Origin: Muribaculaceae bacterium Isolate-110 (HZI) | Lineage (GTDB): Bacteria; Bacteroidota; Bacteroidia; Bacteroidales; Muribaculaceae | Assembly (NCBI GenBank): GCA_003762875.1 | Contig: RIBL01000002.1 | Location: 124,001 to 188,000, forward strand | DNA length: 64,000 nt | Direction: 5' to 3' | Part shown: one piece after another, positions 47,363 to 64,000 of the stretch | How positions within the stretch are numbered: position 1 is the first letter of the stretch | Layout: each line of letters starts with the position of its first letter | The notes under the pieces: generated by a model | The model's input: the letters and a program-made list of their open reading frames with translations, nothing else | What the model was told of the DNA's origin: nothing | The model's database searches: none | Program-made: the position numbers and the translations under genes

Positions 47363-48759
47363 TTTTTAAACTCCCACCAGTCAAAATTAAACAACTTCGG
47401 GCCCTTGCGTCCGGTAAACACAAAGTAAATGTCATGCACTCCCGTCACCTCCATGAGAGCCTTGGCCTCAAGCGTCTTCCAGCTCTCCCAACCACCTGTA
47501 CCCGGCACATCGATACGCGCCACAAGCGGTCCAGCCACACTGTCCATACGCACCTCAATGACACCGCCCCTAAGTGCGCTTGCCACCGAAACCTTGAATC
47601 TCGAGGGGCCGCCCGAACCGAAATCGACGTTACGCACCTTGATCCAGTCGCCATTATGGATATCAGCCACATACACCCCTGTACGGGCATTTGGCTCGGT
47701 AGTCACTCCGCTGGAATAGGCGATGGTCTCGGCCTGCACGCGACGATAGGGATTGAAAACTGCAATCGGACTGACTCCCTCTTCGGTGGGATGTATCACC
47801 GGGAATGTCCCGTCGGGATTATATTTGAACTCCTCTATAGCCACACTGCGTCCGAAACCGCCTCCCCCCGGGAGCCGGCCCGTGTGATAGAGAAAATAGG
47901 AATGTCCTCTGAAGTCGGCCACACCGCAATGGTTGGTAAACGACCCTGTGTCATGGAGCGGCATTATCTCGCCCATATACTTCCACGGCCCTTCGGGAGA
48001 GTCACTCATCGAATAGGATATATGTTCGGGCACACCTCCGGCCGCATAGAGCAGATAATATTTGCCGCCACGCTTATAGAACCACGGCCCCTCGGTATAC
48101 ATGTCTTTGTATTTGGTATTCTTGTCACGGAGTTTGACCGCCGGGGCTCCGAAGCCCTCCACCGTCTGCTCGACTTTTCTGACCTCGCCCTCAAACGAAA
48201 TCATATCCCTGTTGAGCTTCACATAATAAATTTCCGGATTACCCCAGTAGAGATAAGCCTGTCCGTCATCGTCGACAAAGACCGTAGGGTCGATATAGTC
48301 CCAACTGCCGTCGACAAGCGGCGCGCCTATGGCATCCTTAAACGGTCCGACCGGCGTGTCACCTACAGCCACTCCGATAGCCATCGCCCCGGTAAGACTG
48401 GAGTGGAGCGGCACATAGAAATAAAACTTGCCATCGCGCTCCACACACTGCGGTGCCCAGGCCCTGTCGTCAGCCCACTTGAAATCCTCTATCGCCAGGG
48501 GCGAGCCGTGGTCGGTCCAGTTGACCATATCCTTTGACGAATACACGCGCCACTCCTGCATCCAGAAAAAGTCGGCTCCGTTCTCATCATGGCCGGTGTA
48601 TATGTAGAATGTATCGTCATGCACCATCGGTGCTGGATCGGTGGTGTAGCATGTCTGCACCACCGGGTTCTGAGCCGAAGCCGCCGCTGTGGAGGCCAGC
48701 ATCAGTGATAGCATCAGCTTAAGTCTCATTTTTGTACTCTGTTTATCACTATTTTTCAT
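47359..48759 (-). CDS. GH43 glycosidase with CBM6-type domain (arabinofuranosidase-like)
   Basis: 466 residues. Propeller with Asp41 in TTDPAPMVHDDTFYIY, Asp157 in DYIDPTVFVDDDG and Glu223 in MYTEGPWFYKR, the GH43 catalytic set. A CBM6-like sandwich covers about 335-466 (VQAETIAYSSGV to FDWWEF), likely binding xylan ends. The start at 48759 overlaps the GH127 stop as ATGA, which favours it over ATG 48729; either leaves an intact signal peptide ending ASAQ. Expected to remove arabinose from arabinoxylan pieces. Confidence 0.87.
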   Translation of the reverse strand: MKNSDKQSTKMRLKLMLSLMLASTAAASAQNPVVQTCYTTDPAPMVHDDTFYIYTGHDENGADFFWMQEWRVYSSKDMVNWTDHGSPLAIEDFKWADDRAWAPQCVERDGKFYFYVPLHSSLTGAMAIGVAVGDTPVGPFKDAIGAPLVDGSWDYIDPTVFVDDDGQAYLYWGNPEIYYVKLNRDMISFEGEVRKVEQTVEGFGAPAVKLRDKNTKYKDMYTEGPWFYKRGGKYYLLYAAGGVPEHISYSMSDSPEGPWKYMGEIMPLHDTGSFTNHCGVADFRGHSYFLYHTGRLPGGGGFGRSVAIEEFKYNPDGTFPVIHPTEEGVSPIAVFNPYRRVQAETIAYSSGVTTEPNARTGVYVADIHNGDWIKVRNVDFGSGGPSRFKVSVASALRGGVIEVRMDSVAGPLVARIDVPGTGGWESWKTLEAKALMEVTGVHDIYFVFTGRKGPKLFNFDWWEFKK

Positions 48760-51131
48760 TTCTTTTCAGGCTTGATAAGTCTCACGTGAAACACTCCTCC
48801 GGCTGTCTGTCCCTTCTCTCCGGCAAACTTTACCGTCACATACTCCTTACCCTCGACCATATGGGCCGGTATGTCATATTCCTGCTCGACAAACTCGTTG
48901 CGGCCCCATTTTCCGGCCGTGTCCTCGGAGGTGAGAACTGCGTCATCGACAAGTATGTTGAAGCGTCGTTGTCCCGACTCATTGCCCCAGTAGCGCACAC
49001 GCAACGCGAGCTCCGAGGCACCGTCAGTCTTCATGCGATAGGAGAAATATCCACCGTTGGAAGCGTCACGCCACGGCTCGCCGTTGAAGTTGCCCGAGGC
49101 TGACGAGCGGCTCTCCATGAAATGATCGGCCTCGGGCTGCTGCTCGCCGGTATTGACCGCATCAACCGTGCGGCGATCGAGAGCCAGACGCATCTCCTCG
49201 TCGCGGCGCGCGTTGGCCTGATAGAGCCTGTAATCTCTGGGGGTCATCGACAGCCAATACATCATGTAGCGCGAGTCGTGTATGCCGTAGAACGGTTCGA
49301 GCACCAGGTCGGAAAACTTTCCGTCAAACAGTCCCGCCACTCTGTAGGCCATCTCACGACCCTCCACAGGCTTCATGGAATTGAGTTTTTTTACTATATC
49401 CTTGCGGTTGCCTATCAGCAGCGGTGTGTCAAACACCGACACGAGCGGACCGTGGGCTATGTGGCCCCAGCGGCTGTCGTCGGCCACCAGTCCTGTGAGC
49501 GGCGCGCCGTTGTCAAAGCGGGCCGCCATAACGATGGGGCCGCGGAGTATGCTCACATATTCTGGCAGATGATTGAGTTCCTCGAGACGCACTTTCATAG
49601 GCATCTCCATCTCTACCACATCACCGTCACTCCACTCACGGTCTATGGCGATGTATGACGATGGTGTCGACAGAGTCTTCACCTTCATCCCGTTGACCTT
49701 GACAGTCACTGCCTCACACCATCCCGGATGGCGCAGCATCAGGCTCATGTGTCGGGGAGAGTCCATTGCCATAGTCAGAGTGGTGTTTCCGTCAGAGGGA
49801 AAAGCGGTGGTTTGAGTCAGCGTCACACCCTTCTCGCGCCAGTTGAGCACCGAGGGGATAAACAGATTGACATACAGCGAATCGTCACCTGAATGAGTAT
49901 AGATAAACTGACCATACTTGCCATGATTCTCCATGCCGGTGCCCACACAACACCACATGGCACTGTTGGGCTTGGAATACACCCTGTAATGGCCAGGACG
50001 GGCCGATGTGAAATAGACATAGCCGCCATGGTCGGGATGCTGGGTGGAGAGTATGTGATTATAGAGAGCTCGCTCGTAAAAGTCGGCATATCGGGCCTCG
50101 GGGCTCATGCGGAAGAGTCCCTCGGTGAGTTTGAGCATATTGTTGGTGTTGCACGACTCGGGACCTTCGCGGTCATCCACATAACTCTTGGCATCGGAGG
50201 CCGACGCGAAATGCTCGCGACGGCTGTTGCCGCCTATCGAGAGCGAGCGGTTGTTTACGACAGTCTCCCAGAAAAATGTGGCTGCCTTGCGATAGTCGGT
50301 GTCGCCCGAGAGCTCGGCCACACGCTGATAGCCCACGACTTTGGGCACCTGGGTGTTGGCATGCCGGTTGTCGAGATTGTCCACTCCGTCGCGCATGCCG
50401 TCAAAGAGCTGGTGGTGGGTGAAGCGTCTGGCCGCGTCGAGATATTTCACTTCGCCTGTCATGGCATAGGCATCGGCATATACCTCGTCCATGCCGCCAA
50501 ACTCATTATTGAGCATCGACTCCATCTGTCCGTCATCAAGACCTCCGATGACACCAAGACCCCAGTCACACATGCCGAGAAACAGATTGCGACCCACCTG
50601 CGAACCGGTATAGAGCCAGCAGTCACGAAGTCCGGCATACATCTTGTGTACATTATACCAAGGCACCCACCAGTCCCATATCTTACCGGGATTGCCTTTG
50701 CGCAACTCACTCCACAGTTCGTCGCCGTTGGGTACGCCCCCCACATATCCGTCACCGCGGGCTGCCGCACACATGGCAAGCTGGCTCAGCATATAATCCA
50801 TACGCTCTTTGAGCGCGCGATTGCCGGTAGCGGCATAGTGGATGGCAAGTGCCGACAGATAATGACCGCCCACGTGGCCGTCAAGACCGTCCCAATTGGG
50901 AAAACTCTCTCCTTTGGGCTCGAGGCCTGCCGCTTTCATATATGGAGCGAGCAGACGGTCGGTGTCATAGCTCAGCAACACGTCAACGTTAAGGTCGCGG
51001 GCATGGCGAAACGGCCCGTCGAGCAGTTCGACATCCTGCAAGGCAAACTCATTGTTATAAAGTCCGGTCTGCGCGTTCGCCAACGACGACACACACAGCA
51101 TAGCCACCGGTAATAGAATATAAGGTTTCAT
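48756..51131 (-). CDS. GH127 beta-L-arabinofuranosidase family protein
   Basis: About 791 residues from ATG 51131 (MKPYILLPVAML), which starts a clean signal peptide. The zinc/thiolate centre of GH127 is complete: Glu and Cys in ESCNTNNML, and the double Cys in MWCCVGTGMENH near residue 394, the second being the nucleophile in the characterised enzyme. Alpha/alpha barrel first, then beta-sandwiches (about 440-640) and a C-terminal extra domain. In-frame ATGs at 51152 and 51170 exist; the latter lies inside the -7 box. First gene of the operon. The sugar removed in this locus is inferred to be arabinose. Confidence 0.87.
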   Translation of the reverse strand: MKPYILLPVAMLCVSSLANAQTGLYNNEFALQDVELLDGPFRHARDLNVDVLLSYDTDRLLAPYMKAAGLEPKGESFPNWDGLDGHVGGHYLSALAIHYAATGNRALKERMDYMLSQLAMCAAARGDGYVGGVPNGDELWSELRKGNPGKIWDWWVPWYNVHKMYAGLRDCWLYTGSQVGRNLFLGMCDWGLGVIGGLDDGQMESMLNNEFGGMDEVYADAYAMTGEVKYLDAARRFTHHQLFDGMRDGVDNLDNRHANTQVPKVVGYQRVAELSGDTDYRKAATFFWETVVNNRSLSIGGNSRREHFASASDAKSYVDDREGPESCNTNNMLKLTEGLFRMSPEARYADFYERALYNHILSTQHPDHGGYVYFTSARPGHYRVYSKPNSAMWCCVGTGMENHGKYGQFIYTHSGDDSLYVNLFIPSVLNWREKGVTLTQTTAFPSDGNTTLTMAMDSPRHMSLMLRHPGWCEAVTVKVNGMKVKTLSTPSSYIAIDREWSDGDVVEMEMPMKVRLEELNHLPEYVSILRGPIVMAARFDNGAPLTGLVADDSRWGHIAHGPLVSVFDTPLLIGNRKDIVKKLNSMKPVEGREMAYRVAGLFDGKFSDLVLEPFYGIHDSRYMMYWLSMTPRDYRLYQANARRDEEMRLALDRRTVDAVNTGEQQPEADHFMESRSSASGNFNGEPWRDASNGGYFSYRMKTDGASELALRVRYWGNESGQRRFNILVDDAVLTSEDTAGKWGRNEFVEQEYDIPAHMVEGKEYVTVKFAGEKGQTAGGVFHVRLIKPEKK

Positions 51132-51167
51132 AAGCTGTATTATTTTTTCCATTGCATAACTGTATGA

Positions 51168-51175
51168 CAAAAGTA
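51168..51175 (-). promoter_or_regulatory. -7 box of the GH127 operon
   Basis: TACTTTTG on the minus strand about 37 bases before ATG 51131. No clear -33 partner. It decides against the start at 51170. Confidence 0.55.
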
Positions 51176-51398: not shown

Positions 51399-52829
51399 TT
51401 ACTTCACAAGATATTTCTTGCCGTTGATGATGTAGAGTCCGGCGGGAAGATTGTTTATGTCTGAAGCCTCGGCTGTGCGGAGTACACATATGCCCTGGAG
51501 GTTGTAAACGGTATAACCCTGTGTTTCGGGAGTAACCACCACATCCTCGATGGCCGATACGTCACCGCTGTTGGCACCCTTCTGGAACCATAGCTTCACA
51601 TTGTCGACATAACACTGGTTGAGACAGGGGAAGAATCCGATGTTGATGGCAAACGATGTCTTCTTGCCCATCTCGTCGCGTGTCTGGTCGGCATCCCAGT
51701 GTACGGGGGTCGATACTGCGTCATCACCCTCGCCCTCGGTGACTGTGAAGTCGCGGGGAGCCCATGCTATGCCCGAGGGAAGGAACTCTACGTGAGTCCA
51801 TTCGTTGGTCTTGGCAAGAGCCGAGTTGCCGCAGGTCGAGCCGTTGCTGTTGCTGTCTATGCTCCAGGGAGCGTCCTTGACTTTCAGCACGGGTGCTCCG
51901 TTCTTGCCGGCATATTCCTGACCGGTGGTGTGATCAACTCCGGCTATTTCGGTCTCGTAAATATCATACTCTACAAGACGGAGATCGTCGAATGTATATC
52001 CTTCGGGACACTTGATGAGATCCCAGAGGAATATCTGGGTATGGCCGCCATAGATAATGTGGGCGCAATTGTTGTTGTAACCCTCGGGGCCCTTGTCGAT
52101 TATCATATCGGGACGGTTGGAGCTGCCGCCGTTTGATCCAAGGTGGGGAGTGCCCGCGGGATTGGCCTCGAGGTCGTCAAAGTTGATTTCCACACATGCT
52201 GCGGTGCTTTTGTCGAGAGCGGCCTCGTCAAGCTCGCGCTGCGACATCTCTTTCTCGAAGTAAAAGGTTATGTCACCGATATAATAGTCGGTGGGATTCT
52301 TGAAAAATCCGATTGCGAGACCAAAATCTGATGCCTTTGTATTGGCTTCGCCCTGCTCGGTATACTCAAACGAGTCGGGAGCGAAAACTGCCGTATTCCA
52401 TCCGTCCGAGAGAATATCCTCGTCCTGTATCACATTGGTCCAGTCGGCGGGATAGGAGGCTACTGGTGCTTTGAGTTTGATGTCGAGGGGCTTGGGGGTC
52501 TCTGACGGATTGTAATAAGTCACCTCGATCATGATACAGTCGGCGATGGTGAAGCCCTTGGGACAGGAGATGGTTGCGATGCGCGCCCATGTATCCCAGT
52601 CGGGATGATTGACGTGGAGCACTCTGCCCTGCTCGCCTCCCTCAAGAGGGTCTTCAGTGATTATGATGTCGGCATGAGAGGGTGAACCGTTGGTGCCAAG
52701 CTGTGTGCCAAGCTCATAGTTCTCAAAATCAATGGTCAATTCGGTTGACACCGTTTCGGCTGAGGCGGAGAAAGCACACACGGCTCCCAGGCTCAACAGC
52801 GAGAAAAATTGTTTGCAACTAAGATTCAT
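51399..52829 (-). CDS. Secreted protein with two related beta-sandwich modules and a sorting-like tail
   Basis: 476 residues, Sec signal to about 24 without a lipobox. Two modules, about 30-193 and 212-417, are repeats of each other: both begin with an (I/V)xFxxxE/DL-type strand, carry CP(K/E)G(F/Y)T(I/F)xD (89-97 and 274-282), then GFF near 174 and 399, and end with Y(I/V)(G/D)(D/N)(I/V) strands. The same wording occurs in the module inserted in the GH10-like protein of this operon. Residues 439-476 (VYNLQGICVL to the end, LPAGLYIINGKKYLVK) look like a type IX sorting or related C-terminal anchor tail. No catalytic motif. A xylan-binding role is inferred from operon and module, not known. 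Confidence 0.75.
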   Translation of the reverse strand: MNLSCKQFFSLLSLGAVCAFSASAETVSTELTIDFENYELGTQLGTNGSPSHADIIITEDPLEGGEQGRVLHVNHPDWDTWARIATISCPKGFTIADCIMIEVTYYNPSETPKPLDIKLKAPVASYPADWTNVIQDEDILSDGWNTAVFAPDSFEYTEQGEANTKASDFGLAIGFFKNPTDYYIGDITFYFEKEMSQRELDEAALDKSTAACVEINFDDLEANPAGTPHLGSNGGSSNRPDMIIDKGPEGYNNNCAHIIYGGHTQIFLWDLIKCPEGYTFDDLRLVEYDIYETEIAGVDHTTGQEYAGKNGAPVLKVKDAPWSIDSNSNGSTCGNSALAKTNEWTHVEFLPSGIAWAPRDFTVTEGEGDDAVSTPVHWDADQTRDEMGKKTSFAINIGFFPCLNQCYVDNVKLWFQKGANSGDVSAIEDVVVTPETQGYTVYNLQGICVLRTAEASDINNLPAGLYIINGKKYLVK

Positions 52830-52937: not shown

Positions 52938-55772
52938 CTAAGGAAGCGGTTCGATAATCATATTGTCGAGATAGAGGTCACATGCACCGGCTGCATTGGC
53001 TTTGAGCTCGATGATATTTTTGCCGGCATTGAGATATGCTCCGGTGGAGTTGACATACCATATGGTCTTGTCGCTGCCCGACTGGGTGAACACAGGCGAG
53101 GCCACTTTCTCTCCGTTGACATAAAGGTCGACGGTGGTCACGTCGGCACTCTCGGCGCGGTAACGGAACTTGACGGCATATCTTCCCTCATCGATCACGC
53201 TCACCTCGTCGCGCACGGCTGCCGTGTTGCGCTTGCCAAAGTTGATGTAACCCTGACCGGTGTAGTTGCGGATGTTGGAGTTATAGCCGCTTGTCACACG
53301 CGAAGCCACATACTTGAAGTCAAATACCTCGGCCTCATACTGGCGCGGACCATGATAAATCCTGGGCGAGCCTGGCACCTTGAGTGTGGCGGGTGTATAG
53401 TCGGTGAGACGGTCGGAACCGTTGCCTGAACACTCTATGGTGATGTCGAGCGGACCGTTGTGGTCTATAGTCAGAGTGAGCACTCCGTCAGCCCAACTGT
53501 CGGAGGTGCGCACCGAGGCCTCGGCTCGCGGAGTGACAGTATAGGAGGGCTGCGACGATGCTCCGTTGAGTCGGATTGTCGAACGTACGGTGCCGCCGTT
53601 CTCGTTGTAGTTGGTGAGATAGCAAGTGAGACGGTCGGAATACTCCTTCCACACACCTGTGGTAAAGGTCTCAAATGTCAGGTCGAGGCTCTCGCAGGTG
53701 TTATATTTGAGCGGTATGTTGGCCGAGCGCACATCCACCCAGGGGTTGTAGGTCACCCACGTGTTCTCGTGACGGCCGGCAAAGAGGTTGCCGTCATACT
53801 CCTTGGGATAGATGCGGTTGAGCTCGCGGGTCTTGGTTGCGGTATTCTCCCATGACGAGAGGCTCGACTGGTTATACTTATACTCAAACAGGTTGGCGTC
53901 CGAGCCAACAAGCTCAGCCACTACAGGCACCGCCGGATAGCGGCCCGTCTTGCGCAGATAAAAGTGGTTGTCCTCGCGTCCGTTGTCATGGTCGAGCGCG
54001 CTCGTGCCGAGGTGGAACCATTTGGGCAGACAGTACTGCTCGATTTCCGGACCAGAGGTGATGTCCTGTATGACCACAATCTTGGCACGCTCTATTACCT
54101 CTTTTTTGGTCATCAGACGTATGGTGCCGTCGAGTATCTTGCGGAAGAGGTCGATATTGATATTGCGGAACTGCGGGAATGTGCCCCAGGTACGGCTTTG
54201 GTAGCCGTCACCGACATTGGCAAGCCCCTCCTCCTTGAAATCCTGCTGCCATATAAGCTCAGGACCGTCGATGACTGTCTGACCTGTCAGGGTAATGTGC
54301 TCAAGCTGAAGTGCCGCCCCGAGAGCTACCGGATAATCAGCATCGCTCTTGCCGAAATAATAGCTTCCGGCCCATTCGTTCCATGCACACTGGTCGAAAC
54401 GTATGCCGTAGTGGCCGGCATGGCCCGAAAGCCACACGCCCATGCACTCGGCCTCGACATCGAAGAAACAGCCCGACTGGGTGTATTTCTCACACATGAT
54501 AAAGTTTTCGGCATATTGGGCAGATGTGCGGGCAAACTCCGGATTGCGCTTGATCATGGCCACAGGATTGATGGGAGCCGACCAGTAGTTGGCACAGAAA
54601 CTCACGGTGAGATAACCGCCATACTCGTGGGTCAGCTTGAGGAGCTCGTTCCAATGGGCCACTCGCTGCAACCATGAGGGCGAGCCGAGTGCGTCGGTCG
54701 AGTCAAAGCCCCAGAACTGCTCGCAGTAGTTGAAGCCGAGAAAGTTGGGATACTCGCTGAAAAACTCCTTGTACATGCCATACTTCTCCTCGTCAAACTG
54801 TGAATAGGACGAGACATCCGGGAAGTGAGTAAAACCACCCGACGAGGGCTGTATCATTGCCCAGAGATTGCGCTCGGCACATGTGCGGAGCCACGATTTC
54901 ACCGTCTCGTAGCCATACTCGCTCACCTGAAACTGTCCGGTCTGCTCATTATGGCTTACCGACAGCGAAAGGTTGAAGATGACATAAGGCAGTATGTCGT
55001 CAGGTATAAGCTCGATAATCTTTACGGGGTCGGGATAGTTCCAGCAGTCGATGTGCACGAGCCATGCTGGCGACTCGACACTGATGGGACGGCGCAGAGA
55101 GCCCGTGACAGGATCGTCGGGCTTGACGGTGCCGCCACCCGCAGCAAGCGAGAGCGGAGCTGTCGACGAACTGAAATGCACCAGTATGTTTTCAAGATTG
55201 GAGACATCTATCGACTGTATGGCACTTGTCTGTGAGCCTGATGTCATAGATCCGAGCACCTTGCGTCCATAAACCTGTGCGTCGAGCACCCAATGGCCGT
55301 CGGCATCGACCGAAAGCACCGGGGTGACACTCTTGCCGCCGGTCACTTCGATTTTGTTGCCGGTAGTCTCGGCCAGGAGCCACTCGCCGTCGAGAGTCCA
55401 GTAATACACGCCATCCTCATCTGCCTCGGCGGCGACCGCCGGAGTGTAGGAGGTAGGTGATGGCTGCAACGACGGGACTCCCATCGAGCCGACATTGGCG
55501 CGGAAAGCTACCGTGTTGCCGTCGCTGAACTCAATGAGACATCCGTCATCGTCGGCCAGACGGGTTATCTTACTGACAGTCGAGCCGAGAGCCTTTGACT
55601 CGACAGCCTTGCGTATGGCCGCGATATTGGCATTGATATTGTCGAGCGACGCATCGGTCGCAGTAGCCTGAGTCAGCCCCTGCGGTTTGATGTCGCTGTC
55701 GGTGCAGCCCGTGAATGACAAAGCTCCAGCTGACAACAGCAATGCCGGAAATATTATGTTTCTGATTTTCAT
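52938..55772 (-). CDS. GH98 surface lipoprotein, probable endo-xylanase
   Basis: 944 residues. Lipoprotein signal with Cys23 in SFTGCTDS; a DUF4988-like N-terminal region (about 35-205, with a short helix ASLDNINANIAAIRKAV); a GH98 barrel at about 228-575 (PAWLVHIDCWNYPDP, LGFNYCEQFWGF with candidate acid Glu351, YGIRFDQCAWNEW, IDGPELIWQQDF); a beta region; and a C-terminal CBM6/35-like module (about 800-944, YEAEVFDF to YLDNMIIE). GH98 includes blood-group endo-galactosidases, but a Bacteroides ovatus member is an endo-xylanase on heavily decorated xylan. The setting here points to the latter. It is the only intact endo-acting candidate in the window. Confidence 0.85.
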   Translation of the reverse strand: MKIRNIIFPALLLSAGALSFTGCTDSDIKPQGLTQATATDASLDNINANIAAIRKAVESKALGSTVSKITRLADDDGCLIEFSDGNTVAFRANVGSMGVPSLQPSPTSYTPAVAAEADEDGVYYWTLDGEWLLAETTGNKIEVTGGKSVTPVLSVDADGHWVLDAQVYGRKVLGSMTSGSQTSAIQSIDVSNLENILVHFSSSTAPLSLAAGGGTVKPDDPVTGSLRRPISVESPAWLVHIDCWNYPDPVKIIELIPDDILPYVIFNLSLSVSHNEQTGQFQVSEYGYETVKSWLRTCAERNLWAMIQPSSGGFTHFPDVSSYSQFDEEKYGMYKEFFSEYPNFLGFNYCEQFWGFDSTDALGSPSWLQRVAHWNELLKLTHEYGGYLTVSFCANYWSAPINPVAMIKRNPEFARTSAQYAENFIMCEKYTQSGCFFDVEAECMGVWLSGHAGHYGIRFDQCAWNEWAGSYYFGKSDADYPVALGAALQLEHITLTGQTVIDGPELIWQQDFKEEGLANVGDGYQSRTWGTFPQFRNINIDLFRKILDGTIRLMTKKEVIERAKIVVIQDITSGPEIEQYCLPKWFHLGTSALDHDNGREDNHFYLRKTGRYPAVPVVAELVGSDANLFEYKYNQSSLSSWENTATKTRELNRIYPKEYDGNLFAGRHENTWVTYNPWVDVRSANIPLKYNTCESLDLTFETFTTGVWKEYSDRLTCYLTNYNENGGTVRSTIRLNGASSQPSYTVTPRAEASVRTSDSWADGVLTLTIDHNGPLDITIECSGNGSDRLTDYTPATLKVPGSPRIYHGPRQYEAEVFDFKYVASRVTSGYNSNIRNYTGQGYINFGKRNTAAVRDEVSVIDEGRYAVKFRYRAESADVTTVDLYVNGEKVASPVFTQSGSDKTIWYVNSTGAYLNAGKNIIELKANAAGACDLYLDNMIIEPLP

Positions 55773-55862: not shown

Positions 55863-57512
55863 TTACTTTCGGTCAAGTCCTCTTACGATGCCTTCGTAGA
55901 CAAAGTTGCGGTTGCCGTTCGCAACCCAGGGAGCCACATTGACGCCGCCGTCGACCACATCGGAGAAACTGAAGCCATAGGCATTGGCCCCGGCACCGTC
56001 CATATAGCCGCGCACCACCTTCTCATAAAGCTCCGCCACAGCCTGACGCTCAACTGTGTTGAGCGACGAAGGCGACACCTGCATGCCGCTGTGGTCAAGC
56101 ACCTTGACGGTAAAGTTGGAAATACGCACCGGGCGGTCAATCTTAGACAGATGCGCCATGGCCTTCTCGACGGCCGCTTCATTCTTCACCTGAGCGGAAT
56201 ATTCCTGGCGATACACAGCATCGAGCACAAGGTTGATACCGTCGACCTTCACGCCCTTAGCCTCGAGTGCAGCCACCGACTTCATGATTTCGTCAATATC
56301 GGCGGGTGTGTTCTCACCAAGCGAGAGTGTCTGGCTAACGAAATATCTGACAGGCATGCCGACCGCATCATTTACAGCCTTCTGCACGTCGGCCACATAA
56401 CCATCGCCGAGATAAGCAGCCCAGTCAAACGACGCGCTCTCATCGTCAAGAGGCTCGTCATAGATGATATACTCGCTGACATTGCCGCCACACACCTCTA
56501 GTACACCGTTTACCCACTTGTCGAGCTGGCCGCCGATGATCTCCTTCTTCTCGGCATCGCTCTTCTCAATGACGGTGTCATCACCCTTGAGGTGGTCTAT
56601 CTGCACCTGTACGTCATCGATATAGCAGCTTATATTAGAGCCATAGGCTCCCGCACACAAGCTAAACGAGTTGAGGGCCATCTGCTGGGCTGTGAGCTTG
56701 ATTTTCGACATGTCAAACACATAGTCGAGCCATTCGCCCGTGGTCTTGTAGTCATTGTCCTTCTCGTTGTAGCCGGCTGTCTCGATCTGCAGACGCGAGC
56801 TTGTGGCCTTGCCATCCACAATGTAGCATTTCAGACGCACGCGCGATACGTCGGCGAGCGTATAGCCTGCGGGAAGAGTCACCTTGGGCACTTTTGGCAG
56901 ATCCATCGTAAGCTTTGTACAGCCGAGCACCTTGCCCTGCACTCCGGCGGGATCATCGGCAATGGCCACATTGACCGAACCGACATTCTTCTTTGACGAA
57001 GGATACTTGGTGCCGGTGGCCTCGTTCTCAAAGTCGGCCACCTTTACCTGCTCGCTCCAAGGCTCATAGGGTATGATCGTCGGTGCGATAAGCCCTTTGA
57101 GATAGCTGTCGGGAATATTCGACAGCGAGCAGAGGGCCGGTCCGAAGAGCGACACTCCATCCTTGCCGGCCACATCGGCTATCGACGAGAGTCCCGAGAA
57201 GTCATAGTCGCCCTCCTCGTTGATGAGCGTCGAGGGGAGAAACTGCGAGGCGGTCTCTATCTGGTTGAAATTGGTGTGGACTATGCTGTAGGTGAGTCCG
57301 TGCTTGGCATAGTCGGCGGGGTCCACATTCACGCCGAGTCTGAACTCCGGGTCTGACACATAGTCGGTGAGCACCGAGTAAGCCGACAGACGCTGATCCA
57401 TCGCCACGTCATAAGGCTTGTCGGGCACAGGGATAGTGGCCTTGTATTCATCGGCACACGACACCGCCATGATGCAGGCCACTGCCATCCATAAAGGTTT
57501 GATATATTTCAT
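55863..57512 (-). CDS. GH10-like surface lipoprotein without catalytic nucleophile, with inserted binding module
   Basis: 549 residues, lipoprotein signal with Cys19. The layout is that of Bacteroidetes Xyn10C: the first part of a GH10 barrel (about 41-150, ending SLFGPALCSLSNIPDSYLKG where active enzymes have GHTLVWHSQTPDW), an inserted beta-sandwich module (about 155-307), then the rest of the barrel (314-548). The acid/base loop is kept as YDEP (Glu353, active form NEP). The nucleophile loop reads VRISNFTV (Asn466) where active enzymes have VRISELDV, and the conserved His/Gln strand reads INLVLDAV. It is therefore probably not a xylanase but a surface xylan-binding protein. It occupies the xyn10C slot of the xus operon, 27 bases after the DUF1735 gene. 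Confidence 0.8.
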   Translation of the reverse strand: MKYIKPLWMAVACIMAVSCADEYKATIPVPDKPYDVAMDQRLSAYSVLTDYVSDPEFRLGVNVDPADYAKHGLTYSIVHTNFNQIETASQFLPSTLINEEGDYDFSGLSSIADVAGKDGVSLFGPALCSLSNIPDSYLKGLIAPTIIPYEPWSEQVKVADFENEATGTKYPSSKKNVGSVNVAIADDPAGVQGKVLGCTKLTMDLPKVPKVTLPAGYTLADVSRVRLKCYIVDGKATSSRLQIETAGYNEKDNDYKTTGEWLDYVFDMSKIKLTAQQMALNSFSLCAGAYGSNISCYIDDVQVQIDHLKGDDTVIEKSDAEKKEIIGGQLDKWVNGVLEVCGGNVSEYIIYDEPLDDESASFDWAAYLGDGYVADVQKAVNDAVGMPVRYFVSQTLSLGENTPADIDEIMKSVAALEAKGVKVDGINLVLDAVYRQEYSAQVKNEAAVEKAMAHLSKIDRPVRISNFTVKVLDHSGMQVSPSSLNTVERQAVAELYEKVVRGYMDGAGANAYGFSFSDVVDGGVNVAPWVANGNRNFVYEGIVRGLDRK

Positions 57513-57539: not shown

Positions 57540-58580
57540 CTACTTTACAACTACTTCGGGATACTCGGCGGTCACACCGCGGTTGCGGAGCACGAGCGTA
57601 TCGTCGACCTCGAGCGACCATCCTGAGGGATGAGTCACGGTGTAGTCCAGATAGAGGGCGTCACGGTCGGTGCCGCTGATGGCGTTCTTCTCGCCGTCGG
57701 CCACAAAGCGTCCCGAACCGCTCACGGTGACTCCGTCCTCGGCCGATGAGATGACACATGTGCCGTCCTCGGAGTTAAAGTCAAGGCGCAGTCTATAGGC
57801 ATAGGTGTGGTCGGCATCAGTTCGGGTGGAGAGAGATATCTCACAACTGCGATAGGCCGAAGTGCTTACACTCACCTCCTCGTCACGCTCTATATAGTCG
57901 GCCTTGCGCACGATTTCAGATGTCGTGCCGTCGGCGAGAGTGAGACGGTCAGTGCCGCGGCGCAGATACACGCCGTGCCACTCGTTGACATACTTCACGC
58001 AATAGAGCACATAGTCACGCGGGGTCACGCTCCAGTCGGAGGCATTGAGACGGTCGGGATTCTCTACCGCGGGTCTGCCCTGAAGTATCGAGTCGACACC
58101 CTCGGCATGAGTCATCACGATGGGGAGCACATAATTGTAGCCGATGGCTTTGGGGTCGTTGAAAAACTTTTCGTCAAGGCGCACTGTGACTCCGCCGTCA
58201 TGACGGCCGGGCTCAATGGATATGACTCCCGACTCAAGCGTATAGTAATCCTCGGGGAGCACCTCGGCCTTGCCTCCGCCCTCACCCTCGCCGAAATAGA
58301 GGTTGTCGCAAAGCTCGGGCACCACGTCAAAATGGATGGTGCGGGCTACTGTGTTCTTGTACACACCGCCCAGCACGGCCTTGACCATGACACGATGCTG
58401 ATTGTCGAGAGTCAGGTCTACCTCGCGGTCACGGCCGAGTTCGACGGTGCGGCCCACCGACTGATTGGCGAAATATACTGTCTGATAGTCAAAATCAGGG
58501 AACTCGTTGTCAGAATTGTGGCACGAGGAGAGAAGAGCCGGCAACATGGCGGCGATGGCCGTTATCTTGATTGTTTTCAT
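57540..58580 (-). CDS. DUF1735 surface lipoprotein (XusE-like)
   Basis: 346 residues, lipoprotein signal with Cys20 in LSSCHNSD. The N-terminal half matches DUF1735 (FPDFDYQTVYFANQ, ISIEPGRHDGGVTVRLDEKFFND, NYVLPIVMTHAEG). The C-terminal half is a beta-barrel-like domain as in the DUF5627 group. This type sits fifth in the xusABCDE-xyn10C cluster described in Prevotella and Bacteroides and is thought to bind xylan at the surface. Located 38 bases after susD and 27 before the GH10-like gene. Confidence 0.82.
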   Translation of the reverse strand: MKTIKITAIAAMLPALLSSCHNSDNEFPDFDYQTVYFANQSVGRTVELGRDREVDLTLDNQHRVMVKAVLGGVYKNTVARTIHFDVVPELCDNLYFGEGEGGGKAEVLPEDYYTLESGVISIEPGRHDGGVTVRLDEKFFNDPKAIGYNYVLPIVMTHAEGVDSILQGRPAVENPDRLNASDWSVTPRDYVLYCVKYVNEWHGVYLRRGTDRLTLADGTTSEIVRKADYIERDEEVSVSTSAYRSCEISLSTRTDADHTYAYRLRLDFNSEDGTCVISSAEDGVTVSGSGRFVADGEKNAISGTDRDALYLDYTVTHPSGWSLEVDDTLVLRNRGVTAEYPEVVVK

Positions 58581-58618: not shown

Positions 58619-60382
58619 TTACCAGCCGGCGTTTTGCTGAAGATTGCTGAATTTCAGCACCTCCGAGTTGGGTATCGGGCCGTAATACATATAGTCGGTA
58701 AATTCGCGACGCTCCACCTCGGGCAGCGCGGTGTGCACTCCGCCTCTGATCTCAGTGCCGCGGGCATTCTCGTTGATGTCAGCCTTCCAGCGGCGCAGGT
58801 CCCAGAAACGGAAGCTCTCGAAACAAAGTTCCAGACGACGCTCGTTGCGTATCAGAGCCTGCATCTTTGCGGGGTCGGCCGCACACTCGTCAAGATAAGA
58901 GTGGTCGGTGATGCCGGCGCGGGTGCGGATGGCCTTGATTACGTCATAGGCCGAATAACCATGCTTCCCGGTGCCCTTGGGACCCCAAGCCTCATTGGCC
59001 GCCTCGGCATAGTTGAGAAATATCTCCGTGTAACGGATGCGCGGTGTGTAGTGGTTCTTTGACTGAGCCATCGAGGGATTGCAGTTGACATCCATGCGCA
59101 GACGTTTCTTCATGTAATAGCCTGTGCGGGTCGAGGTCTCGCGCTTGTTGAGACCGTCGGCGGTGGTGGCGTCGGCCGATGTGTTGATCACCGTATTGCT
59201 GACTCCGGCCTTCGATCCGTTATAGATGATATAGAGGTCCAGACGGGGGTCGCGGTCAGCATAAGGATTCTTCTCGTCATATCCGCTACGCGAGTCGCTG
59301 ATAGGATAGCCGTTCTTCATCGGGAAAGCATCCACGAGATTCTGAGTCGGATTCATGCGGCCCTTGCCGTAGAGCGAAGGCGGGAAATTGTTCTCCTCTT
59401 CCGAACGATTTGACTCCACATTGCCGCGCCATATCATCTCTTGGGGGCCGACACCCATCTTCAGGGCATCGATTTCGTCAGTATTATTATAATATGTGTG
59501 ACCGTTGGATGCAAGTTTCGAGGGACCGCCTATATGGTCGATGACATCGGCGGCTGCGTCGGCGGCCTCGGCCCAGGTGACGGCTGCGGCTGCCTCATAG
59601 GCCGGACTCGCGGCGAGCAGTGCCACACGCGAACGGATGGCGCGGGCTATAAGACCGTTCATGAGATGTTGGCCATACTCGCCCATCACACGGTTGTAGC
59701 TGCCCACATGGGTGGTGTACTGGTCAAACGGTGCGGGAACAGTGGCGTCGGAGGGCAGACTGACATACTCAAGCGGCAGATTCTGCTCGGCTATGTCAAG
59801 GTCTTCGTTGATCATTCTCACATACTCCTCAAATGTCGCGCGTGGTATATTGAAATCCGAAGTGTTTGCCATATAGTTGCGCAGAGCTATCGGTCCGTAG
59901 AGCTGTCCGTCGGCGGCGATGCCCGAATGGTTGCGCAGCAGATAATACATGAAGAGGGCGCGGAGTCCGTGAGCCTCGCCTATGGTGCGGGCTTTGAACA
60001 GAGCAGCCACCTCGGGGTCTTCGGCCCACTGAACTTTATCGGCGTTGTCGAGAAACAGGTTGAGGTTCTGGATATTATTGAGACATCCCTGCCACTTCGA
60101 CAACGGGTCGTTGAACGATGTCCACGAGCCTGTGGCCATATTGCGTATGGCATTATCGATTTCGTTGGTCACGGCGTCGTCGGTGGCATATTCGCTGTTG
60201 TCGTAATAGCCGGGTATGTTACGGTAGACGTGCATGAGAAATCCCTGCGCGAAGTTACGGTCATCCTCGATCTGGTCTACGTCCTTGAGGTTGTCATCGG
60301 CCGGATCAAAGAGGTCGTCGCAGGAGGAGAGGCCTGCCACCGACACGAGAGCCAGCATCATATGAGCTATTTTGTGTTTCAT
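58619..60382 (-). CDS. SusD-like lipoprotein (XusD-like)
   Basis: 587 residues, lipoprotein signal with Cys21 in AGLSSCDDLFD. TPR-like helices with GEAHGLRALFMYYLLRNHSG, then RIRYTEIFLNYAEAANEAWG, the C-terminal RNERRLELCFESFRFWDLRRW and the final NAGW. Ligand-binding lid of the SusC coded just upstream. Its neighbours make a xylan oligosaccharide the probable ligand. Confidence 0.94.
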   Translation of the reverse strand: MKHKIAHMMLALVSVAGLSSCDDLFDPADDNLKDVDQIEDDRNFAQGFLMHVYRNIPGYYDNSEYATDDAVTNEIDNAIRNMATGSWTSFNDPLSKWQGCLNNIQNLNLFLDNADKVQWAEDPEVAALFKARTIGEAHGLRALFMYYLLRNHSGIAADGQLYGPIALRNYMANTSDFNIPRATFEEYVRMINEDLDIAEQNLPLEYVSLPSDATVPAPFDQYTTHVGSYNRVMGEYGQHLMNGLIARAIRSRVALLAASPAYEAAAAVTWAEAADAAADVIDHIGGPSKLASNGHTYYNNTDEIDALKMGVGPQEMIWRGNVESNRSEEENNFPPSLYGKGRMNPTQNLVDAFPMKNGYPISDSRSGYDEKNPYADRDPRLDLYIIYNGSKAGVSNTVINTSADATTADGLNKRETSTRTGYYMKKRLRMDVNCNPSMAQSKNHYTPRIRYTEIFLNYAEAANEAWGPKGTGKHGYSAYDVIKAIRTRAGITDHSYLDECAADPAKMQALIRNERRLELCFESFRFWDLRRWKADINENARGTEIRGGVHTALPEVERREFTDYMYYGPIPNSEVLKFSNLQQNAGW

Positions 60383-60404: not shown

Positions 60405-63215
60405 TCAGAATGACAGCTTGCAGCCTACGTTGTAGTAGCGTGTCTGGGGATAGCCTGTCGACATCTCGAGTATCTTGCGCTCCTTGGCGATAGTCGCAAG
60501 GTTCTCGCCTTCGACATACACACTGATGCCCGACACGACTTTGCCGTCAAAGAGGCTCGGTGAGAAGTCATATGTGAGCTGCACGCGGCTCAGGTCAAAG
60601 CGGTCGGTGCTGTAACGCCAGAAGGTCGAGGTCTGGTTGTTGTTGGAGGTAGTGCCTGTGGTCAGACGCGGATAGAGGGCTGTCGAGGCGGTCTCGGGAG
60701 TCCAGCGCAGCCATGCGTTTTCAGAATACTTGTTTTCGCCTCCGTTGAGATAATAGCTGTTGTTGTTGAATGCTATACCGCCCGTGCGACCGGTGCCATA
60801 GGCAAAGAGTGTCCAGTTGCGCCACTTGGCTGTGATATTGATGCCGTAGGAAAAATCGGGCGTATATGTGCCGAGATACACACGGTCGTTGCTGTCAACC
60901 ACTCCGTCATTGTTGACGTCCTTGTATTTCAGGTCGCCGGGACGGAGAGTGCCGCCGAAAGCCTGGCGCACACCGCGTGAGTCTATCTCTTCCTGGCTCT
61001 CGAAAAATCCCTCGCATATGTAGCCGAACGCCGAGCTCAGCGGACGTCCCACAGTCGAGAGATAGTCATAGCGCACCATCTCGTCGCGGCGGGTGGCCTT
61101 CTGCGACAGATACATGCCCGAGAAACCGGCCGAGAGTTCCCACTCGCCGAAATTCTTGACTGCACGCACCGTGAAGTCTACACCCTGACGGCGGTCATTG
61201 TTATAATTGATCCAGGGCAGATAGTTGGAGTCCCATACGTCGAGAAACGAGGGATACACCGAGTTGGAGCCGCGTGTGAGACCACCCTTGGTGTCCTGGA
61301 TAAACCAGTTGACTCCGGCCGACAGCAATCCGTTAAAGAATGTGCCTTCCAGTCCGGCCCTTATCTCCTCGCGAGTGATAAAGGTCAGGTCGAGGTTGTC
61401 GCCCTGCTTGGGCATGGAGGTGTAGATGCCAACGTTGCCGTCCTGATAGGAGAGCCAGCCGCCGTTGTGCTTGTAGCCGAAGTAGCGTTTCCACAGATAC
61501 CAGTCCGACACATCGATGTCCTGATGCAGACGGGCGGCCGAGGCGGTGAGCTTGAGCTCATCGATCCACGATGCGTTCTCGCGGATGAAATTCTCCTGGC
61601 CTATGCGCCAGCCGAGAGTCACGGCGGGCGAGAAAGCGTTGCGCTTGCCGGGAGCAAACTTTGACGAGCGCACCAGCGCGCCGGCGAGTGTGGCATAATA
61701 GCGGTGGTCGAAATTATAGCTCACCTGAAGGCCCGCGTTCACGTTGGATGTGTTGTGAAACGAGCTGCTCTCATGGTCGGCGTCTGCCGAATTGTGGGTC
61801 TGATAGCCCCAGCCCATGAGCATGGCGTCAACCTGATGGAGTCCGCCAAACACCGCATGGTAGTCAAACTGCCCGCGGAAGAGCATATTCTGATAATAGG
61901 TCGACTGGCCGACAAATTCGTTGGTCGAATTGGTGTCGTTGCCATACTTGTTGAGACCGATTATCATATCCTTGCCGTTGAGATTGCCCCACACGGGCTC
62001 ATAGACGGCATAACCCTCGCTGAAACCCTCGGAATACACCGAACGGTAGTCAACTCCGAAGGCTGTCTTGAACGAAAGACCTTTGAGTATGGCCTTGAGG
62101 TCAAAGTCCAGACCCACGTCAAAGAGAAATGTACGGGTCTTGGTCTTCACATATCCAGCCTCAAGTGCGTCGCCGATGGCGTTGGTTGAATTTTGCGATG
62201 TGCCGCCAAGCAGATAGCGTCCGTCGATAAGTGTGGCCGAGGCTATCATGTCCTGAAGCTCCGAATTGTTGGGGTCAACCATATCGACAGGCAGAAGCAC
62301 TCCGAAACGGTTGGGCCATGTGCCCGAGGCCATACCCCAGAAATCGCCTCGCGAGGCATAGTCGTCGTTGACCAGCACCGAAGCGTTGGTATAGCCCTTG
62401 AGCCAGTCGGTAATCTGCATGTCGACATTGCCGCGCACATTGAAGCGCAGGGTATTGTCATTCTTGTGATCGCCGACCTTGACCAGACCGTTGGTGTATT
62501 TTAGTCCTACATTCATGTAGTAGTGAGTGCGCTCGTTGCCGCCGCGTATCTCACCGTTGGCCCCGTAAGAGTTGGAAAACTTGCGCAGAAACTCGTCGTT
62601 GTAATACTTCTGGTCGGGATAACGGTAAGGATTTGCTCCGACAGCCGTATTATATATGGTAGCGGCATCATAACGCTCCGACAGGCCGTCATTGCGGCAT
62701 GCCTCGTTATAGAGAGTCATGTAGCTGGCCGCGTCAAGATATTTGGGATAGGTCTTTGGCACATAGAATCCGGCATTGGCGCGGAAGTCGATGTGCATCT
62801 TCTCCATATTGCCGCGCTTGGTGGTGATGAGTATCACTCCCTTGGCGGCACGGCTGCCATAGAGTGCCACCGCGGCGGCATCCTTGAGCACCGACACCGA
62901 AGCCACTTCCGAGGCAAGCACGTCGGCAACGTCGCGGGGCATCCCGTCGACGAGCACAAGCGCGTCCTGACCCCACACCTGGCCGTTGTAGCCTCCGATG
63001 ATTGACTGAAGGCTGCCGTCAAGGGCATTGTCGGTAAAATTCTTCTTGAGCAGCTCCTCCATATTCACTGACGACACGGCATTGATGACATCCTCTTCCG
63101 GCAATGTCCCGAAAGCCACATTCACAATGCTGTCGCTCTGAGCATAGACCGTCAGGCAGGGGCATAGTGCCATCGTAAGGGCCGTGCTTACGATATATTT
63201 GGATATTATGTTCAT
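60405..63215 (-). CDS. SusC-like TonB-dependent transporter (XusC-like), short N-terminus
   Basis: 936 residues, signal peptide ending VYAQ (about 26). The mature protein goes almost at once into the plug (DALVLVDGMPRD, VSVLKDAAAVALYGSRAAKGVILITTKRG). It lacks the carboxypeptidase-regulatory-like domain seen in the other SusC in this window. The 22-strand barrel ends VGCKLSF with terminal Phe. It lies 22 bases before its SusD partner. Together with the upstream SusD it represents the second half of a tandem SusC/SusD xylan uptake system. Confidence 0.94.
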   Translation of the reverse strand: MNIISKYIVSTALTMALCPCLTVYAQSDSIVNVAFGTLPEEDVINAVSSVNMEELLKKNFTDNALDGSLQSIIGGYNGQVWGQDALVLVDGMPRDVADVLASEVASVSVLKDAAAVALYGSRAAKGVILITTKRGNMEKMHIDFRANAGFYVPKTYPKYLDAASYMTLYNEACRNDGLSERYDAATIYNTAVGANPYRYPDQKYYNDEFLRKFSNSYGANGEIRGGNERTHYYMNVGLKYTNGLVKVGDHKNDNTLRFNVRGNVDMQITDWLKGYTNASVLVNDDYASRGDFWGMASGTWPNRFGVLLPVDMVDPNNSELQDMIASATLIDGRYLLGGTSQNSTNAIGDALEAGYVKTKTRTFLFDVGLDFDLKAILKGLSFKTAFGVDYRSVYSEGFSEGYAVYEPVWGNLNGKDMIIGLNKYGNDTNSTNEFVGQSTYYQNMLFRGQFDYHAVFGGLHQVDAMLMGWGYQTHNSADADHESSSFHNTSNVNAGLQVSYNFDHRYYATLAGALVRSSKFAPGKRNAFSPAVTLGWRIGQENFIRENASWIDELKLTASAARLHQDIDVSDWYLWKRYFGYKHNGGWLSYQDGNVGIYTSMPKQGDNLDLTFITREEIRAGLEGTFFNGLLSAGVNWFIQDTKGGLTRGSNSVYPSFLDVWDSNYLPWINYNNDRRQGVDFTVRAVKNFGEWELSAGFSGMYLSQKATRRDEMVRYDYLSTVGRPLSSAFGYICEGFFESQEEIDSRGVRQAFGGTLRPGDLKYKDVNNDGVVDSNDRVYLGTYTPDFSYGINITAKWRNWTLFAYGTGRTGGIAFNNNSYYLNGGENKYSENAWLRWTPETASTALYPRLTTGTTSNNNQTSTFWRYSTDRFDLSRVQLTYDFSPSLFDGKVVSGISVYVEGENLATIAKERKILEMSTGYPQTRYYNVGCKLSF

Positions 63216-63238: not shown

Positions 63239-64000
63239 TTACCATCCGGGATTTTGTCCGAACTCGGGATAGATATTCACGTCGGCCGTCGGCAGCGGGA
63301 ACCAGTAGTGACGTGCGTCGAGCTTGCGTTCGAGTATGACCTCCTCGCGAAGATTCACCACTCGGGCCTCCTTGGGATTGCTGAAATCCATACCGGCCGC
63401 GCGGTCAAACTCCAGGCGCGTCTTGTAGGTGTAAGGACGCTCGGTGAGCAGCAGCCAACGGCGAAGGTCATGGAAACGGTGACCCTCAAAGGCGAGCTCT
63501 ACGGCGCGCTCGCGGCGCACTTCGCTCATGAATGCCTCGCTATCGCCTGTGTAGCGCGAGTTGACTCCGCCCACTCCGGCACGGGCACGCACCTTGTTGA
63601 CAGCCTCTACCGCGGTCATCCCGAAAGTAGCGGCCTTTGACGAGGGGGTGCCGTAACCGTTGGCCACAGCCTCGGCATAAAGCAGATACACATCAGCAAG
63701 ACGCATGAAGCTGACCGACATACACATGTCATACTCGTTGTAATAAGCCACGGTCTTGGCCATCTGAGGGATCCATTTGGTCTCGATAAAGCCTGTGAGA
63801 TTTGACTTCAGAGCATTGGCTGTGCGGTGCTTGCCTTTGGAGTAGAGACTCGCATACTTGATCTCAGCCTCGACCTCTCCCTTCTCGTCCTTGACCACCT
63901 GCACACCGTCAAATGCTACGTCCTTGTAGAAACGCGGGTCGCGATCCTTCCAGGGATGCGAGGGGTCATAGCCCGACACGGGGTCGGCTTCGGTCCACGA
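63239..64000 (-). CDS. SusD-like lipoprotein, cut by the window end (XusB-like)
   Basis: C-terminal part only; the frame stays open to base 64000. The visible ~253 residues hold SVSFMRLADVYLLYAEAVANGYG, VRRERAVELAFEGHRFHDLRRW and the terminal GQNPGW, all typical of SusD C-termini. The ATG-less start near 63979 is not a true start. 23 bases before the SusC gene, in the place of xusB. Its own SusC partner should lie outside the window. Confidence 0.93.
   Translation of the reverse strand, partial: SWTEADPVSGYDPSHPWKDRDPRFYKDVAFDGVQVVKDEKGEVEAEIKYASLYSKGKHRTANALKSNLTGFIETKWIPQMAKTVAYYNEYDMCMSVSFMRLADVYLLYAEAVANGYGTPSSKAATFGMTAVEAVNKVRARAGVGGVNSRYTGDSEAFMSEVRRERAVELAFEGHRFHDLRRWLLLTERPYTYKTRLEFDRAAGMDFSNPKEARVVNLREEVILERKLDARHYWFPLPTADVNIYPEFGQNPGW

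What the first reader, a model, noticed from the sequence alone, without database searches (positions are those of the whole stretch)
55863..57512. Dead GH10 xylanase kept in the Xyn10C slot, probably as a xylan-binding protein
The protein aligns with GH10 along its whole length, including the inserted module, and keeps YLGDGYVADVQKAV (compare YLGDDYV...A in enzymes), LEAKGVKVDGI and a final Y-E-G-I-V-R-G-L. Yet the nucleophile Glu is Asn466, the strand with GHTLVWH is replaced by FGPALCSL, and the conserved His/Gln positions are gone; only Glu353 of the catalytic pair remains. The gene keeps its lipoprotein signal and an intact frame, so it is under selection for some other use. A surface binding protein derived from the very enzyme that normally fills this operon position would be a neat case of enzyme-to-receptor change.
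Basis: partly seen in the sequence, partly recalled or inferred. Interest (0 to 1): 0.78.

Follow-up and report, generated by a model that had tools for sequence, protein, structure and literature searches.

The report
Dead xylanase relative, likely xylan-binding
A bacterium carries a former xylan-cutting enzyme that has lost its cutting residues; it matches, in sequence family and gene position, a protein of Bacteroides ovatus already reported as inactive and xylan-binding on the cell surface, so it is a good extra example of a known kind.

Summary
Window 55863-57512 (-) encodes a 549-aa protein with a real GH10 match (Pfam 1.1e-8) and a predicted xylanase barrel. Glu353 is kept, the nucleophile position is Asn466, and GHTLxWH has become FGPALCSL. 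The explanation is in print for a relative: Rogowski et al. 2015 report BACOVA_03431 of Bacteroides ovatus PUL-XylL as an inactive, surface-located GH10 that binds xylans. I found that gene by position beside the gene of crystal structure 3N91. The window protein has the same neighbours (two SusC/SusD pairs, the 3N91 homologue, GH98) and falls in the same clade: 32 dead proteins against 6 intact GH10s, support 100/100. So this is a Muribaculaceae member of a known kind. Added here: the gene block occurs beyond the B. ovatus/B. xylanisolvens range of that paper; 11 of 32 clade members lost the acid/base Glu too; and the inserted module is not detectably that of the intact in-slot enzyme. It is a CBM-like domain without a Pfam model that also sits on intact GH10 proteins and a GH8 protein. 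Old active-site columns are no better conserved than the rest of the barrel, so binding may lie in the module. Binding by this protein is unmeasured.

The parts
55863..57512 (-). GH10-like pseudoenzyme, 549 aa, positional and phylogenetic counterpart of BACOVA_03431
57456..57512 (-). lipoprotein signal peptide, MKYIKPLWMAVACIMAVSC, followed by ADEY
   Evidence: read from the sequence; lipobox and surface-export rules are recalled, not tested
57075..57380 (-). first part of the GH10 barrel (residues 45-146), with FGPALCSL in place of GHTLxWH
57123..57146 (-). FGPALCSL (residues 123-130)
56577..57074 (-). inserted CBM-like beta-sandwich module (residues 147-312), no Pfam model
55866..56576 (-). 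second part of the GH10 barrel (residues 313-549)
56454..56456 (-). codon of Glu353, acid/base position, kept
56115..56117 (-). codon of Asn466, nucleophile position
57540..58580 (-). homologue of 3N91 (BACOVA_03430), BT_3987-like_N + DUF5627
   Evidence: the BACOVA_03430 name for 3N91
58619..60382 (-). SusD-like protein
60405..63215 (-). SusC-like TonB-dependent transporter (Pfam Plug match)
63239..64000 (-). second SusD-like protein, cut by the window end; whole gene and the second SusC follow on the contig outside the window
52938..55772 (-). GH98 (50% identical to the GH98 two genes after the B. ovatus dead GH10)
51399..52829 (-). 476-aa protein with one clear and one weak copy of the same module
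48756..51170 (-). GH127-type beta-L-arabinofuranosidase by Pfam (the label GH146 in my scripts is recalled)
47359..48759 (-). GH43 with CBM6
44780..47362 (-). GH115
42314..44749 (-). GH31
35948..40003 (+). hybrid two-component sensor regulator

Best explanation
It is a surface xylan-binding lipoprotein derived from a GH10 xylanase, the Muribaculaceae counterpart of BACOVA_03431. It is anchored by a lipidated cysteine. It would hold highly decorated glucuronoarabinoxylan at the cell surface beside the GH98 and the two SusC/SusD transporters of the same operon. It should not cut, because the nucleophile and most substrate-contact residues are gone. Shown here: loss of the residues, gene order, clade, purifying selection in relatives, CBM-like predicted fold of the insert. 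Taken from the B. ovatus homologue: surface location, lack of activity, xylan binding. Inference only: that the inserted module does much of the binding.
For: BACOVA_03431 is similar to GH10, lost the nucleophile, was inactive on xylans, sits on the surface and binds BGX and CX (PMC4491172, passages). In genome G1229 the gene after a protein 100% identical to 3N91 over 312 aa is a dead GH10, followed by GH30 and GH98. In 26 of 27 mapped dead loci the gene upstream is the 3N91 homologue; the 27th starts at a contig end. One clade, 32 dead against 6 intact, 100/100. dN/dS 0.05-0.17 in 14 of 15 computable pairs of 17 tried. The insert's model resembles CBM11, CBM4, CBM22 and SGBP domains, and its profile also finds intact GH10 proteins and a GH8 protein. 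The rest of the locus is a complex-xylan gene set.
Against: Only 31% barrel identity to BACOVA_03431, and one module instead of two. BACOVA_03431 itself binds with lower affinity than a SusD of its locus. Old active-site columns are not conserved above the barrel (0.752 against 0.712 in 11 Muribaculaceae rows; random draws reach it in 25%). Comparable GH18-like dead protein BT1284 showed no measurable glycan binding (PMC11180146, passages). dN/dS of the target against its nearest relative is 0.30 with dS 1.4, so selection on the window gene itself is shown only weakly. The module's best structure matches are weak (TM 0.35-0.56) and the same list holds Cry toxins and other beta-sandwiches.
Confidence: 0.75

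Rival explanations
1. It is a structural partner of the SusC/SusD complex that no longer binds glycan itself, a docking or spacing lipoprotein.
For: The old cleft is not under extra conservation. A GH18-like dead protein in an N-glycan locus bound nothing measurable. BACOVA_03430, the homologue of its fixed neighbour, bound none of the xylans tested.
Against: The B. ovatus homologue binds xylans. The insert has a CBM-like predicted fold and its profile finds intact GH10 proteins and a GH8 protein.
Confidence: 0.15
2. It is still an enzyme, with another residue as nucleophile or another reaction.
For: Glu353 is kept, and 21 of 32 clade members keep that Glu. One member, L048, has Glu at the nucleophile column.
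Against: 11 of 32 have Gln or Asn at the acid/base, 31 of 32 lack the nucleophile Glu and 32 of 32 lost the GHT His. The B. ovatus homologue was inactive on xylans.
Confidence: 0.06
3. It is a decaying gene with no function.
For: Loss of catalytic residues and long branches compared with the intact GH10s. Two hits were fragmentary (G832, G1254), either assembly breaks or broken genes.
Against: Open frame in the window, low dN/dS among relatives, fixed gene order in 26 of 27 loci.
Confidence: 0.03

Closest known systems
BACOVA_03431, inactive GH10 SGBP of Bacteroides ovatus PUL-XylL (Rogowski et al. 2015, PMC4491172)
   Same: Same slot after the 3N91 homologue and two SusC/SusD pairs, upstream of GH98; nucleophile lost; same clade; same module family inserted
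   Different: 31% barrel identity; one inserted module, not two; acid/base Glu kept here while the B. ovatus gene found by position has Asn; nucleophile Asn here, Asp there; no GH30 between it and GH98
Intact GH10 with inserted modules in the same slot (own genome, L003 within L078)
   Same: Same position after a 3N91-like gene; insert at the same point of the barrel
   Different: All catalytic residues present; 23% barrel identity; inserts not detectably related by sequence
GH18-like pseudoenzymes of Bacteroides N-glycan loci such as BT1284 (PMC11180146)
   Same: Dead glycosidase barrel kept in a SusCD locus
   Different: Other family; no glycan binding measured there

Membership tests
GH10 (as sequence and fold family) | Significant match to the GH10 profile and barrel fold | tested here: met
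   Pfam 1.1e-8 above cutoff; Foldseek best E 9.4e-11 to a xylanase
GH10 (as an active xylanase) | Both catalytic Glu and the GHTLxWH histidines | tested here: not met
   Glu353 present, Asn466 at the nucleophile, Pro125 for the GHT His
Inactive-GH10 SGBP of the BACOVA_03431 type | Gene slot directly after a 3N91 homologue in a tandem SusC/SusD xylan locus | tested here: met
   the second SusC lies just outside the window
Inactive-GH10 SGBP of the BACOVA_03431 type | Same clade, apart from intact GH10s | tested here: met
   100/100 for 32 dead rows against 6 intact rows, rooted on the intact ones
Inactive-GH10 SGBP of the BACOVA_03431 type | Loss of the nucleophile and of -2 subsite residues | tested here: met
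   the alignment in the -2 loop is less certain and subsite numbering is recalled
Inactive-GH10 SGBP of the BACOVA_03431 type | Surface lipoprotein | tested here: inconclusive
   Signal peptide and Cys19 are visible in the sequence; no predictor or localisation was run
Inactive-GH10 SGBP of the BACOVA_03431 type | Binds xylan, no xylanase activity | not testable with these tools
   Published for BACOVA_03431 only, as far as seen
Known CBM families (insert) | Match to a Pfam model | tested here: not met
   0 Pfam families at E <= 0.1 for the target module, 1 marginal hit (PF22686, 0.037) in 1 of 13 members; predicted fold CBM-like, TM 0.35-0.56. CAZy CBM families without a Pfam model were not tested

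The most novel reading that the evidence does not exclude
The death of the enzyme went with an exchange of the inserted module. The GH10 barrel has become a scaffold, and xylan is held by a CBM-like module family without a Pfam model. That module family also serves intact GH10 proteins, a GH8 protein and a module protein encoded two genes downstream.
Probability: 0.35. Interest if true: 0.5.

Novelty: new member of a known kind. Interest (0 to 1): 0.33.

Why it matters
The inactive GH10 binding protein, for which the 2015 paper knew no other natural example, belongs to one clade found in Bacteroides, Phocaeicola and Muribaculaceae genomes (names from record titles or inferred), with the complex-xylan gene block around it. 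It also marks a CBM-like module without a Pfam model whose ligand could be measured directly on a small soluble domain.

Tried and rejected
The first genome-contig scan with the single protein found no relative; the second, with alignment A1, gave 10 loci. An order-wide profile search found only the own genome, 1 of 393 at 1e-40; at most 3 candidates were scored in each genome listed and it spread over 207 genera, so it says little about spread. A test whether the old active site is a conserved new pocket failed to show it. A test whether the insert is the same module as in intact GH10s was negative by sequence (no profile hit in L003; hhalign against 5 intact rows 5%, E 0.0076, over 73 columns), but distant kinship within beta-sandwich CBMs is not excluded. 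L048, with Glu at the nucleophile column, could be an intermediate or a reversion; its place inside the clade is unresolved. Two fragmentary hits, G832 (L036) and G1254 (L055/L063), were left out of the alignment and counts. For the tree rows L031, L035 and L044 were dropped as second pieces or copies of proteins already in. For the conservation test five near-copies (L065, L066, L067, L069, L034), the identical intact row L039, those three rows, and the three-row Muribaculaceae subfamily L075-L077 were not in the tested groups. Foldseek against the pdb_via library could not be run.

Full report
Observation. The frame 55863-57512 (-) encodes 549 aa. It is a genuine GH10 relative: Pfam PF00331 at 1.1e-8 and a predicted barrel; of the 50 PDB neighbours listed (249 at E <= 0.001), 48 are described as xylanases or GH10 and 2 are designed enzymes. 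Glu353 holds the acid/base position, Asn466 the nucleophile position, and GHTLxWH reads FGPALCSL.

Prior art. Rogowski et al. 2015 (PMC4491172; passages read) describe BACOVA_03431 of Bacteroides ovatus PUL-XylL: a surface lipoprotein similar to GH10 that lost the nucleophile and has a disrupted -2 subsite, inactive on xylans, binding BGX and CX (birchwood glucuronoxylan and corn xylan; expansion recalled). It lies next to BACOVA_03430 (PDB 3N91), GH30 (03432) and GH98 (03433). The paper says no other natural inactive GH10 had been described, and that the high synteny of PUL-XylL seen in B. ovatus and B. xylanisolvens was not found in any other of 260 Bacteroidetes genomes. A 2016 paper repeats the case (PMC4855328, passages). 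A 2024 review suggests that a GH10 gene of Phocaeicola may likewise serve binding (PMC11610566, passage), so the extension to that genus has been guessed at in print. Searches for further cases showed none in what I opened; the library is open-access only, one search listed 20 of 32 papers, and several listed papers (for instance PMC12333352, PMC11892949, PMC11155115) were not opened.

Is the window protein of that kind? Its upstream neighbour matches 3N91 at 2.8e-97. Genome G1229 (6.47 Mb) encodes a protein 100% identical to 3N91 over 312 aa, taken to be B. ovatus BACOVA_03430. The next gene is a 754-aa GH10-type frame with Asn and Asp at the two catalytic positions, then GH30, then a GH98 50% identical to the window's. 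I take that gene as BACOVA_03431 by position. Of 28 loci mapped, 27 carry a dead GH10. In 26 of 27 the gene before it is the 3N91 homologue; the other (L021) starts at a contig end. After it comes GH30 (12), GH98 (5), a relative of the window's 476-aa module protein (7), or, after about 1.4 kb, a GH98-like gene of 37% identity (3; a small separate frame lies between). The 28th locus, L078, is from the window's own genome: a 3N91-like gene (39%) followed by an intact GH10. In the window only one SusC and one whole SusD are inside; the second SusD and SusC run on just beyond the window end on the same contig, followed by a GH43.

Spread. Hits at the thresholds used: 12 of 397 genomes of the window's family including its own (1e-20); 8 of 61 of the genus of G784, which a record title calls Phocaeicola, of which four (G784 itself, G805, G830, G843) have a full-length dead-type protein, one (G832) a fragment and three intact GH10s (1e-30; motifs); 6 of 399 of that family (1e-60); 13 of 119 of the genus of G1074, taken to be Bacteroides because G1229 is in it (1e-60). 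These sets overlap in part. Muribaculaceae is the title of several matching records, others there are titled Porphyromonadaceae; the window's organism is placed by belonging to the same family group.

Evolution. A barrel-only tree puts 32 dead-type proteins in one clade against 6 intact GH10s, 100/100; branch lengths among the dead are long, and the outgroup is small. In those 32: nucleophile column Glu in 1 (L048), Asp 18, Asn 6, Ser 5, Val 2; acid/base Glu in 21, Gln 7, Asn 4 (among them BACOVA_03431); the GHT His in none. dN/dS could be computed for 15 of 17 chosen pairs: 0.05-0.17 in 14 and 0.30 for the target and its nearest relative, where dS is 1.4; several other pairs also have dS above 1. 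The family is under purifying selection; for the window gene itself the evidence is indirect.

The insert. A profile built from the insert of 12 Muribaculaceae members, run on 8 chosen proteins, finds two copies each in BACOVA_03431, L026 and L027, a clear copy in the window's 476-aa protein and a copy in a GH8 protein of the same genome, and none in the intact in-slot GH10 L003. hhalign against the inserts of 5 intact GH10s gives 5% probability, E 0.0076 for that one comparison. A wider module profile (which includes the 476-aa protein's copy) gives 7 matches in the own genome at 0.01: the target, the 476-aa protein (one strong, one at 0.004), the GH8 protein, a 440-aa two-copy protein, and a 1000-aa protein that carries a GH10 domain (3.6e-97) with both catalytic motifs readable. 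In the family sample 4 of 149 genomes match at 1e-10; in G037 the module lies on another GH10 protein with its motifs intact (3.3e-96) and on a 793-aa protein without Pfam match. The module has no Pfam model and only a chance-level sequence match in the PDB (0.93). Its predicted structure (pLDDT 91.6) resembles CBM11 (best, 3.2e-5), SGBP domains, CBM4, CBM27 and CBM22, with Cry toxins and other beta-sandwiches in the same list. The partners point to xylan or a related beta-glucan as ligand; that is inference.

Where is the binding site? If the enzyme cleft had become a receptor pocket, its columns should be well conserved within the dead clade. They are not: 15 active-site columns average 0.752 against 0.712 for the barrel in 11 Muribaculaceae rows, and 0.759 against 0.706 in 13 Bacteroides/Phocaeicola-type rows; random draws do as well in 25% and 19%. 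In 5 intact rows the value is 1.0. The two Trp columns tested are mostly Ser. This argues mildly for the module as the site, and against the reading that the old active site was turned into a receptor. It is a coarse test with few rows.

Context. The locus has a hybrid two-component regulator, two GH115, two GH43 (a third just outside), a GH97 with an esterase domain, two further esterase-type genes, a GH127-type enzyme, GH31 and GH98, the make-up of a complex glucuronoarabinoxylan locus.

Verdict. A well-supported new member of a known kind. The added value is the wider range, the loss of the second catalytic residue in 11 of 32 clade members, and a CBM-like module without a Pfam model that replaces, or has diverged beyond recognition from, the module of the intact enzyme in this slot.

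Noticed in passing
window 51399-52829 (-): 476-aa protein without a significant Pfam match carries one clear and one weak copy of the same CBM-like module as the dead GH10; relatives lie directly after the dead GH10 in seven other loci and after GH98 in L018.
   Followed up: partly
L097 1182-4184 (-) and L098 5350-8708 (-), own genome contigs C24 and C25; L106 8694-10439 (+): The same module sits on GH10 proteins with intact motifs in two genera, on a GH8 protein, and in two copies on a 440-aa protein beside the GH8 gene.
   Followed up: partly
L048 1486-3780 (-): A member inside the dead clade has Glu at both catalytic positions but has lost GHTLxWH; an intermediate or a reversion.
   Followed up: partly
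L075 8359-10008 (-), L076, L077: A second Muribaculaceae subfamily in the same slot has Asn at both catalytic positions; L075 falls below the Pfam GH10 cutoff (15.8 bits against 22.1).
   Followed up: partly
L026 (JAMPHR010000001.1): Record is titled Paenibacillus sp. but has the contig length and gene of G184, a genome of the window's own genus, and a Muribaculaceae-type xylan locus; the public label looks wrong.
   Followed up: no
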